Shown: positions 45,892 to 57,600 of the stretch, piece after piece
How positions within the stretch are numbered: the first letter of the stretch is position 1
Layout of the letters: each line of letters opens with the position of its first letter
Assembly (NCBI RefSeq): GCF_008704495.1
Contig: NZ_CP023699.1
Location: 9,238,001 to 9,302,000 of the forward strand
Source of the DNA: Streptomyces kanamyceticus
Lineage (GTDB): Bacteria > Actinomycetota > Actinomycetes > Streptomycetales > Streptomycetaceae
Length of the DNA stretch: 64,000 bases
Direction of reading: 5' to 3'
Position numbers and translations under genes: made by a program
Notes under the pieces: model-generated
Seen by the model: only the letters and a program-made list of their open reading frames with translations
Database searches by the model: none
What the model was told of the DNA's origin: nothing

Positions 45892-46269
45892 TCAGGCGAG
45901 GGGGGCGAAGAAGTAGGTGTCCCGGCGGGTGAACAGGCCGTCGTGGCCGAAGCCGAAGTAGTCGGCGAACTCCAGGTCGACGGGGCTGCCGTCGTGCAGC
46001 ACGCCGTGGAACTCCCCGAAGACGGCCACGTCTGCACCGCTCTCCACGACCCGCTCGATGACGTGACCGCCCTCGCGGATCGTCCGTTCCTTCGTGTAGA
46101 AGTGCAGCAGTCCCGCCGGGCCGATCCGGGGGCCGTAGCCGGGGCGCCGGTAGACGGCGTCGGGTGCGAAGAGCGCGGCCATGGCCGGGGCGTCGCCCGC
46201 GTCGACCAGGGCGTAGAACCTCATCACCTGGCGGGTGCGGGACGCTCGCGTCGCCGTTTCTGGGGTCAT
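45892..46269 (-). CDS. SnoaL/NTF2-like small protein
   Basis: 125 residues with a cone-shaped NTF2-type fold: VMRFYALVDAGDAPAMAALFAPDAVYRRPG, GPAGLLHFYTKERTIREGGH, ESGADVAVFGEFHGVL, FADYFGFGHDGLFTRRDTYF. Such proteins are cyclases, isomerases or binding proteins in biosynthetic clusters. The ATG at 46267-46269 overlaps the stop of the upstream C-A gene (ATGA) and has AGGAGG six bases before it, inside that gene, so the two are tightly coupled. Confidence 0.8.
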   Translation of the reverse strand: MTPETATRASRTRQVMRFYALVDAGDAPAMAALFAPDAVYRRPGYGPRIGPAGLLHFYTKERTIREGGHVIERVVESGADVAVFGEFHGVLHDGSPVDLEFADYFGFGHDGLFTRRDTYFFAPLA

Positions 46270-54604: not shown

Positions 54605-57600
54605 ATGAACTGGCTGCCCCTGACGTCGGTCGAGCTCGATGCCCCCGCACCGCTGGACCCAGACGGGCACGTTCGGCTCATCTCCTCACGACCGGCGCTC
54701 CACACGGAACCCGAAATCGCCTCCCCCGTCGGCGTCCTGGAGTTCCTGGGGCGCGCGGACGATCAGGTGAAGGTGCGGGGTTTCCGGGTGGAGCCGCGCG
54801 AGGTGGAGGCGGTGGTCGCGGGCTGTGCCGGGGTCGCCCAGTGTGTGGTGGTGGCCCGCGAGGACGAGGCGGGAGGGCCTCGCCTCGTCGCCTACGTGGT
54901 GGGTGCGTCGGTCGAGCCGGAACGGGTGCGCGCGTCCGTGGCCCGGGTGCTGCCCGACTACATGGTGCCCTCGGCCGTCGTCGCCCTGGACGCCCTGCCG
55001 CTGACGGCCAACGGCAAGCTCGACCGGGGCGCTCTGCCCGCCCCCGAGGCAGGCGGCGGAGCGGGGACCGGGCGTGGCCCGCGTACTCCCGAAGAGGAGG
55101 TCTTGTGCGGCCTGTTCGCCGACGTCCTCGGACTTCCCCGGGTCGGCGTGGACGACGACTTCTTCGCAGTGGGCGGGCATTCGCTGTCGGCGACCCGCCT
55201 CGTCTCCCGGGTGCGCTCGCGGATGGGCGTCGAGCTGAGCGTGCGCGATTTGTTCTCGGCCCCGTCGGTGGCGGGTCTCGCCGCCCGGCTGCGGGTCGAC
55301 GAGGAGTCGTCACGCCCGGTGCTGCGTGCGGGGGAGCGGCCCGAGGTCGTGCCGCTGTCGTTCGCGCAGCACCGGCTCTGGTTCATGCGGGAGTGGGAGG
55401 AGGGCGGCGCCTCCTACAACATCCCCCTTGCCGTACGCCTGCGGGGCGCGGTCGACGCGGAGGCCCTGCGGCTCGCGCTCGGCGACGTCGCCTCCCGGCA
55501 CGAGGTCCTGCGCACGCGCTATCCCGTGACGGACGGAGAGCCGCGGCAGGAGGTGGCCGACCACGCCGAGATCCCGCTCCTGATGTCCGACGTGACGTCC
55601 ACCGTGGACGAAAGCGCCTTGTCGGCGCGCGTGGACGCCGCCGCCGATCACCGGTTCGACCTGGCGGCCGAGGGCCCGCTGCGGTGTGAGCTGCTCCGGA
55701 TCACCGCCGACGAGCACGTCCTGTTGCTGGTGCTGCATCACATCGCGGGCGACGGCTGGTCGTTGGCGCCGCTGGCTCGGGACCTCTCGGTGGCGTACGC
55801 GGCACGCCGCGACGGGGTGAGTCCCAAGTGGTCCGAGCTCCCGGTGCAGTACGCGGACTACGCGCTCTGGCAGCGTGAGCTGCTCGGCGACGCGGTCGAT
55901 CCGGCGAGCGTCCAGGCCCGTGAAGTGGCGTACTGGCGAAAGCAGTTGGCGGGCGTGCCAGCGGAAGTGGAGCTGCCCACGGACCGCCCGCGTCCGGCGG
56001 TCGCCTCCTACCAAGGCCGTTCGGTGACGGTCGAGGTGCCCGCCGCGCTGCACGCCGGTCTCGTCGGTCTGGGCCGCGAGTCGGGCGCGACGCTGTTCAT
56101 GGTGGTGCAGGCGGCCCTGGCTGCGCTGTTCTCGCGGCTCGGCGGCGGCTCCGACATTCCCCTGGGCACGGCTGTGGCGGGACGCGCGGACGAGGCACTG
56201 GACGATCTCGTCGGCTTCTTCGTGAACACCCTCGTCCTGCGGACCGACGTCTCGGGCGACCCCACCTTCCGTGAACTGCTCGACCGGGTGCGCGCCACCG
56301 ACCTCGACGCGTACGCCCATCAGGACCTGCCCTTCGAACGCGTCGTGGAAGCCCTCAACCCGGCCCGCTCCAGCGCCCGCCACCCCCTCTTCCAGCACAT
56401 GCTCGTCCTCCAGGACAGCGCGGCACTGGACGTCACCTTCCCCGGCGTGACGTCGTCCGCCGTGCCGCTGGACCGCAGGTCGGCCAAGTTCGACCTGACG
56501 TTCTTCGTGGAGGAGACCTTCGACGAGGACACGGGCGGCACCGCGAACGGGCTGCGGTGCGACGTCGAGTACGCAACCGATCTCTACGACCGCACCACGG
56601 TGGAGACCCTGACCGGCCGTCTCCTGCGGCTCCTGGAGTCGGTCGTCGCGGACCCCGACCGCCCGGTCTCCCGCATCGGACTCCTCGAAGCCCACGAGGA
56701 ACGGCGCGTCCTCGCGGAGTGGAGCGACGCCCACGCACCGCTCCCACGGGCCCGCGCCGTGCACGAGGTCTTCGAGGAGCAGGCACGCACGCACCCGCAC
56801 AGGACCGCCCTGGTCCACGGCACCGCGCACGTCTCGTACGCCGAACTCAACGCCCGTGCCAACCGGATCGCCCGCCGCCTCGCCGACCTGGGCGTCGGCC
56901 GGGACCAGGTGGTGGGGATCTTCCTGGCCCGGGGAACCGACCTGGTGGCGTCGCTGCTCGCCGTGCTCAAGACGGGCGCCGCCTACACGCTCCTGGACCC
57001 CTCCTTCCCCCAGGAGCGGCTGCGCACGGTGGTGGACACGGTCAGGGCGCGGGTGATCGTCTCTGATGGCTCACTGCCCGAGCGCCTGGGCGCCGATGGC
57101 TCACTGCCCGAGCGCCTGAGCGCCGAAGGCTCACCGCCAGAGCGCCTCGCCACCGACGCTCGCCTGTTGCTCCTCGACGAGGAGGCCGAGACCGTCGCGG
57201 CGCACTCGGGAAGCGACCTGGACATCGCCTGCCCGCCCGGCACCCCCGCGTGCGTCATGTTCACCTCGGGCTCGACCGGCGTCCCCAAGGGCGTGGTGGC
57301 ACCGCACCGCGCGGTGGCGTCGACCTTCCTCGGCCAGGACTACCTGGGCTTCCGCGCCGATGACGTCTACCTCCAGTCGTCGCCGGTGTCGTGGGACGCC
57401 TTCGCCCTGGAGGTCTTCGGCGCCCTCTTCCACGGCGGCCGCACGGTGCTGCCGAAGGAGCGCAAGACCGACATCGACGAACTCGCCGACCTGGCCGGGG
57501 AGCACGGCGTGACCGTCCTCCAGGTCTCGGCGACCCTGTTCAACCTCTTCGTCGACGAGCGGCCCGAGATCCTCTCCGGGCTGCGCACGGTGATGACCGC

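What the first reader, a model, noticed from the sequence alone, without database searches (positions are those of the whole stretch)
46266..55075. One adenylation domain split between two divergent NRPS genes
Seen: the minus-strand C-A protein ends after YRTGDLVRW plus about 13 low-complexity residues, and the plus-strand NRPS starts about 45 residues before GRADDQVKVRGF. The two break points fall within a few residues of each other at the A7/A8 hinge, where the large core and small mobile subdomain meet. One half has all of A1-A7 and no catalytic lysine; the other has only A8-A10 with K138 and a carrier domain. Both ends are clean: the C-A stop is in an ATGA overlap with the next gene, and an in-frame TGA precedes the NRPS start. 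Inference: the two proteins may reassemble a working C-A-T module in trans, with MbtH perhaps helping. Natural split A domains at the hinge are, to my knowledge, hardly known.
Basis: partly seen in the sequence, partly recalled or inferred. Interest (0 to 1): 0.95.

Follow-up and report, generated by a model that had tools for sequence, protein, structure and literature searches.

The report
Hinge-split adenylation domain, two proteins
In a Streptomyces gene cluster, the amino-acid-activating domain of a peptide-making enzyme is encoded as two separate proteins cut at its hinge, an arrangement also seen in a related strain; the two halves likely come together to work as one enzyme.

Summary
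A minus-strand protein (46266-48881) holds a condensation domain and an adenylation core with motifs A1-A7. The plus-strand NRPS (from 54605) begins with A8-A10 plus a carrier domain. On solved relatives the pieces meet within four residues. The C-A half recurs in three other sequences (84-91% identity); both halves were seen in Streptomyces sp. NPDC087300. The split core is 92-97% identical across the four. Corrections: (1) the condensation domain lacks its catalytic histidine in all four, so this is probably a split loading unit, not a C-A-T module; (2) the halves have different nearest relatives, suggesting complementary truncations of two domains, though gene conversion could mimic this; (3) the C-A tail is read-through into the SnoaL ribosome-binding site; (4) one functional split A domain is already published (Crz1/Crz2, PMC11342130), cut after A8. 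Reassembly in trans is the best explanation (0.7) but untested; ortholog DNA for a selection test could not be obtained.

The parts
46266..48881 (-). C-A(core) protein, 871 aa: the large half of the split adenylation domain
47508..48881 (-). Condensation domain, probably inactive
   Evidence: Pfam PF00668 1-458; catalytic motif changed
48477..48497 (-). HALAADG in place of HHxxxDG (second His replaced by Ala)
46302..47441 (-). Adenylation core, motifs A1-A7 present; ends YRTGDLVRWR
46269..46310 (-). 14-residue tail; read-through of the SnoaL leader including its AGGAGG (46278-46283)
   Evidence: low confidence, pLDDT under 50
54605..64000 (+). NRPS (3323 aa from ATG 54605; runs past the window end to about 64576): [Asub]-T-C-A-T-C-(dA)-T-C-A-T-TE
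   Evidence: TE by reading and Pfam of the homolog cluster P0246
54605..54727 (+). N-terminal tail MNWLPLTSVELDAPAPL..., 28 of 41 residues identical in NPDC087300; no confident fold
54728..55039 (+). Orphan small subdomain Asub, motifs A8-A10 (the mobile half)
54770..54772 (+). A8 lysine (GRADDQVKVRG)
55016..55018 (+). A10 catalytic lysine (K138 counted from ATG 54605)
55082..55291 (+). Carrier domain T1 (GGHSL), presumed target of the split A domain
56717..58288 (+). Module 2 A domain, complete; its Asub is the nearest relative of the orphan Asub
59951..60295 (+). Deleted adenylation domain of module 3 (A6/A7 remnant only, no A8-A10)
49233..49452 (+). MbtH-like protein, divergent from the C-A gene
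   Evidence: PF03621, 100.8 bits; no NCBIfam match
51535..53328 (+). Stand-alone A-T protein, complete (rival loader)
45892..46269 (-). SnoaL-like gene; its start codon overlaps the C-A stop
44803..45879 (-). Branched-chain aminotransferase-like gene
53554..54552 (+). AsnRS-like asparagine synthetase A, directly upstream of the NRPS

Best explanation
The minus-strand C-A protein carries the large core and the start of the plus-strand NRPS carries the small mobile subdomain of an adenylation domain, and the two proteins likely associate to activate one amino acid and load it on the adjoining carrier domain T1. Shown: the two pieces complement each other at the A7/A8 hinge to within a few residues, each keeps its own catalytic motifs, the C-A half recurs in four sequences and both halves in the one relative where the NRPS was seen too. 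Inferred: the core binds ATP and the amino acid, the orphan Asub docks to it from the NRPS, its A10 lysine (K138) completes adenylation, and after rotation its A8 face brings T1 in for thioester formation. The break runs between the rigid C-Acore platform and the mobile Asub-T arm, so the part that moves stays covalently tied to the carrier it serves. The C domain has lost its catalytic histidine and is probably only a structural platform, which fits a chain-initiating loading unit. The inferred history is two complementary deletions: a stand-alone C-A-T gene lost Asub-T up to the SnoaL leader, and the first NRPS module lost its core.
For: Complementary ends on 11 solved chains, from a gap of 1 to an overlap of 4 residues. 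Split C-A without A8-A10 in four sequences of 871-905 aa at 84-100% identity. NPDC087300 shows C-A (P0125), NRPS with the same start (P0341) and AsnA-like protein (P0003) on contigs of one listed length, 1370620. Core identity to the three others is 96.7, 96.0 and 93.5%, against 88.3, 86.3 and 83.6% for the C domain. Between this window and NPDC087300, orphan Asub 88.5%, T1 92.9% and split core 93.5% are in the range of the complete in-line domains (A2 core 89.4, A2 sub 84.3, A4 core 94.5, A4 sub 93.6), whereas the deleted A3 remnant is at 78.4. In a sample of relatives 77 of 82 near-complete cores have an Asub within 40 aa; the 5 without are the four split ones and one at a contig end. Confident models of both pieces (blocks of the core, and of Asub-T from about residue 60, mostly above 90). 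Engineered cores lacking Asub are stable enough to crystallise (SlgN1 deltaAsub, LgrA F-A-delta-sub). Precedent: Crz1 construct inactive alone with glycine, active when mixed with Crz2.
Against: No biochemistry. Ortholog DNA could not be obtained, so no dN/dS. Both halves together were seen in only one relative; the S. formicae NRPS start was not read. The orphan Asub is being homogenised with module 2 (own orphan and own A2 share stretches that differ in NPDC087300), so its intactness is weaker evidence of selection than it looks. No docking element is identified: the conserved C-A tail is explained by the SnoaL ribosome-binding site and the NRPS N-tail has no confident fold. T3 of the same NRPS has no adenylation domain at all, so loading of a carrier by another protein presumably occurs here already, and T1 could be served likewise. 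C domains C3 and C4 are as divergent (84.0, 85.2%) as the split C (83.6%), so the lower conservation of the split C proves nothing by itself.
Confidence: 0.7

Rival explanations
1. The two pieces are independent leftovers: T1 is loaded by another enzyme in trans (the stand-alone A-T protein or an unknown A domain), the orphan Asub is inert, and the C-A protein has some other role.
For: Module 3 of the same NRPS has lost its A domain and presumably is loaded in trans; a complete stand-alone A-T lies in the cluster; the C domain is already degenerate; gene conversion can keep Asub intact without selection.
Against: The core keeps A1-A7 and is 92-97% identical among the four, between the in-line A2 core (89.4%) and A4 core (94.5%) in the one pair compared; a deleted A domain in the same protein is more divergent (78.4%); the two cuts complement each other closely; in the one relative where both could be checked the split core and the orphan Asub occur together.
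Confidence: 0.17
2. The core works with the small subdomain of a complete A domain (for example module 2 of the same NRPS), not with the orphan one.
For: Orphan and A2 Asub are nearly the same sequence, so a core that fits one may fit the other.
Against: The A2 Asub is tethered to its own core; only the orphan one is free and next to an otherwise unserved carrier.
Confidence: 0.06
3. A rival on history only: simple fission of one A domain of an intact first module by an inversion, so that both halves descend from the same domain. The mechanism of action would be as in the best explanation, so this odds figure overlaps with it.
For: In relatives the order MbtH - NRPS - SnoaL - BCAT is colinear, and a rearrangement is needed to reach the divergent order here; gene conversion could have erased the original Asub ancestry.
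Against: Core groups with the G019 and G516 C-A-T cores (support 0.997) while the orphan Asub groups with module 2 (support 0.995) and the G019 Asub lies nearest G516; in G019 the stand-alone C-A-T sits directly before SnoaL-BCAT as the C-A does here, and the C-A reading frame runs into the SnoaL leader, as a local deletion would leave it.
Confidence: 0.25
4. Sequencing or assembly error in one genome.
For: None found.
Against: Same split in four sequences, two of them from other named organisms; the window is in a single-contig genome.
Confidence: 0.01

Closest known systems
Crz1 A2 / Crz2 split adenylation domain of corallorazine biosynthesis (PMC11342130; abstract, passages and section 9 read)
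   Same: One A domain on two proteins of one cluster; the smaller piece sits at the start of the protein that carries the T domain; activity was restored by mixing the halves.
   Different: Crz is cut after A8, behind an inserted methyltransferase, on adjacent genes. Here the cut is before A8 at the hinge, there is no insert, the genes are divergent with five genes between them, the C domain is probably dead, and the halves have different nearest relatives.
   Same: A core 64% identical, same neighbours SnoaL and BCAT, C motif also degenerate (HPNGVRG).
   Different: Keeps its own Asub and T.
SlgN1 deltaAsub, PDB 4GR4/4GR5 (3-methylaspartate, streptolydigin, as listed in PMC11253843)
   Same: A core without Asub, 56-57% identical to this one, stable enough to crystallise.
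   Different: An engineered truncation of a complete enzyme fused to an MbtH domain.
Interrupted A domains (AMA4, PDB 5WMM)
   Same: Sequence is inserted into the A domain near its mobile part.
   Different: Still one chain.

Membership tests
Complete NRPS adenylation domain | Core A1-A7 and Asub A8-A10 on one chain | tested here: not met
   C-A lacks PF13193; the NRPS start lacks PF00501
Complete NRPS adenylation domain | All ten motifs and both lysines present in the pair together | tested here: met
   read from the sequences; motif positions partly recalled
Functional split A domain (Crz1/Crz2 kind) | Complementary halves on two proteins of one cluster | tested here: met
Functional split A domain (Crz1/Crz2 kind) | Cut between A8 and A9 | tested here: not met
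   cut lies between A7 and A8
Functional split A domain (Crz1/Crz2 kind) | Adenylation restored when the halves are mixed | not testable with these tools
   needs proteins
Active condensation domain | HHxxxDG with the second His | tested here: not met
   HA(L/I)AADG in 4 of 4 split members; HH..DG in 108 of 119 listed homologs with the motif aligned
MbtH-dependent A domain | MbtH gene in the cluster | tested here: met
   49233-49452, PF03621
MbtH-dependent A domain | Activity needs MbtH | not testable with these tools
   needs proteins

The most novel reading that the evidence does not exclude
A natural two-protein adenylating enzyme assembled from halves of two different adenylation domains: a condensation-dead C-Acore platform encoded on the opposite strand pairs with a foreign Asub-T arm at the front of the assembly line, so the first building block can be changed by exchanging a separate core protein.
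Probability: 0.4. Interest if true: 0.85.

Novelty: new variant of a known kind. Interest (0 to 1): 0.72.

Why it matters
NRPS engineers cut and swap adenylation domains near the hinge. Here a module is cut in nature at the boundary between rigid platform and moving arm, and the arrangement recurs in related strains. If the halves reassemble, it shows that Asub can do its large rotation without a covalent hinge, and it gives a natural route to exchange the core (the substrate choice) as a separate protein.

Tried and rejected
Docking by the conserved C-A tail (TPTPRRQP): rejected, since the codons spell the SnoaL AGGAGG and its spacer. Hidden A8-A10 downstream of C-A, or a hidden core upstream of the NRPS: none seen. 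Assembly error: rejected. Own-genome pairing of cores and subdomains was inconclusive: 24 of 108 PF00501 matches have no PF13193 match within 3 kb downstream, many of them in frames that look like non-NRPS ligases (my reading of frame lengths), and none of 83 PF13193 matches came out as orphan because the 3 kb rule paired the orphan Asub with the neighbouring A-T core; the sample of relatives was used instead. G478 was left out of that count because its frames are broken, and the sample holds some near-identical loci. Selection test on DNA: no ortholog DNA could be reached. Searches of Streptomyces or its family (392, 61, 394 and 371 genomes, overlapping; by the AsnA-like or BCAT protein) showed no second close copy (next best 77% for AsnA-like, 71% for BCAT), and the genome-contig scan may leave out near records. 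Six further proteins of the 120 listed lack PF13193: four are labelled partial; P0179 ends before A7; P0232 was not followed. Specificity by hand (GrsA positions recalled, not from a call): split core D-A-L-H-M-G-G-I-F; not used as evidence. The 11 chains were picked by me from the lists, not all shared chains. Papers: ten searches; PMC11253843 (passages), PMC8303602 (passages), PMC10212144 (one legend passage, which names the second His of HHxxxD as the active-site one) and PMC11342130 (abstract, passages, section 9) were seen; the rest only as search listings. That kutzneride synthetases hold a truncated A domain is recalled only.

Full report
What is there. The window lies in a single-contig genome of 10.13 Mb. 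It belongs to Streptomyces: a same-genus hit, G256 C209, matches a contig titled S. zinciresistens in coordinates and sequence. On the minus strand, 46266-48881 encodes an 871-residue protein with a condensation domain and an AMP-binding core, and nothing after it. On the plus strand the NRPS starts with AMP-binding_C and a carrier domain and continues C-A-T-C-(deleted A)-T-C-A-T-TE to about 64576, past the window end. Between them lie MbtH, thioesterase, TauD-type oxygenase, a stand-alone A-T protein and an AsnRS-like asparagine synthetase A.

The cut. The core ends GDLVRWRT and the other piece resumes at VGVLEFLGRADDQVKVRGF. Mapped on LgrA the last core residue is 1609 and the first orphan residue is 1610; on 11 chains the join ranges from a gap of 1 to an overlap of 4 residues. 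PMC11253843 (passages) places the hinge at GRxD at the start of A8, with A1-A7 in the core and A8-A10 in Asub, and shows lysines 434 and 517 (GrsA numbers). So the break lies just before the hinge.

Conservation. A search of 5.8 billion proteins with C-A returned 1574 at E <= 1e-50 among 7992 scored candidates, of which the best 120 were listed. Four have this form: the window's own, S. formicae (878 aa, 91%), an unnamed one (905 aa, 87%) and Streptomyces sp. NPDC087300 (902 aa, 84%). NPDC087300 also has the NRPS, 84% over residues 1-230, beginning MWSENDMNWLPLTSVELDAPAPL and then the orphan Asub. Its C-A, NRPS and AsnA-like proteins are listed on contigs of the same length, 1370620. The NRPS of the other two relatives was not read. 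Core identity of the window to the three others is 96.7, 96.0 and 93.5%; C domain 88.3, 86.3 and 83.6%; the lowest core pair among the four is 92.2%. Against NPDC087300: orphan Asub 92 of 104, T1 65 of 70, A2 core 353 of 395, A2 sub 91 of 108, A4 core 397 of 420, A4 sub 103 of 110, deleted A3 remnant 87 of 111, C2-C4 84.0-89.2%. Both halves therefore behave like the complete domains, not like the remnant. The C3 and C4 values show that the divergence of the split C is not unusual.

Dead C domain. The second histidine of HHxxxDG, the active-site one (PMC10212144, legend passage), is alanine in all four. Among 119 of the 120 listed homologs where the motif aligned, 108 have HH..DG, four (the split ones) HA..DG, seven other changes. 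The intact C-A-T of G019, 64% identical in the core and directly before SnoaL and BCAT, has HPNGVRG. The C domain may therefore have been lost as a catalyst before the split.

Origin. In a sample of relatives, 77 of 82 near-complete cores have an Asub within 40 residues; the other five are the four split ones and one at a contig end (G478 excluded). The core clade joins G019 and G516 with support 0.997 (8 leaves). The orphan Asub joins module 2 of the same NRPS and its NPDC087300 counterparts with support 0.995. The G019 Asub lies nearest those of G516. The split core is only 50.5% identical to the module 2 core. The C-A frame runs into the SnoaL leader and stops inside its start codon, as a local deletion of Asub-T from a C-A-T gene would leave it. 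In L039-L042, whose AsnA-like protein is 76-78% identical, the gene after it begins with a complete A-T (in L039 behind a stretch that reads like part of a C domain), so the first NRPS module here probably lost its core. Complementary truncations explain all this. A caution: own orphan and own A2 Asub share residues that differ in NPDC087300, so gene conversion is at work and could hide a common origin.

How it likely works. A core without Asub is a stable fold (SlgN1 deltaAsub, LgrA F-A-delta-sub, teicoplanin A1 core and GrsB1 core constructs). The predicted C-A has core blocks mostly above 90 pLDDT and a low-confidence tail. The NRPS start is predicted as a confident Asub and T with a low-confidence N-tail. 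The inferred cycle is given in the best explanation. The precedent is the Crz1 A2 construct, without turnover alone and active with Crz2.

Place among known things. The kind (functional split A domain) has one published case that I could find (open-licence papers only). This is a new variant: cut at the hinge, no insert, divergent genes, likely dead C domain, halves with different nearest relatives.

Noticed in passing
59951-60295: Module 3 of the NRPS has a deleted adenylation domain (only an A6/A7 remnant) and a carrier with GGYSL; also in NPDC087300. It presumably is loaded in trans.
   Followed up: partly
54728-58288: Modules 1 and 2 are near-repeats at the Asub end (114 of 120, 103 of 111 and 97 of 114 bases identical in the first three windows), a sign of duplication or gene conversion.
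   Followed up: partly
53554-54552: AsnRS-like asparagine synthetase A is found in 57 of 392 Streptomyces genomes at E <= 1e-40; in several fetched loci it lies near TauD, A-T, thioesterase and MbtH genes; role unclear.
   Followed up: partly
L084 17240-20191; G495 locus: An A domain whose small subdomain is interrupted by about 415 residues in one frame.
   Followed up: no
42250-44751: Penicillin-amidase family enzyme next to the cluster.
   Followed up: no
37465-42176, minus strand: By reading the translations: glycerol-3-phosphate dehydrogenase-like, FGGY kinase-like and sugar-transporter-like genes, probably outside the cluster.
   Followed up: no
L176, L177, L166 (G478): The related NRPS genes in G478 are broken by many frame changes, probably a low-quality assembly (76% complete).
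   Followed up: no
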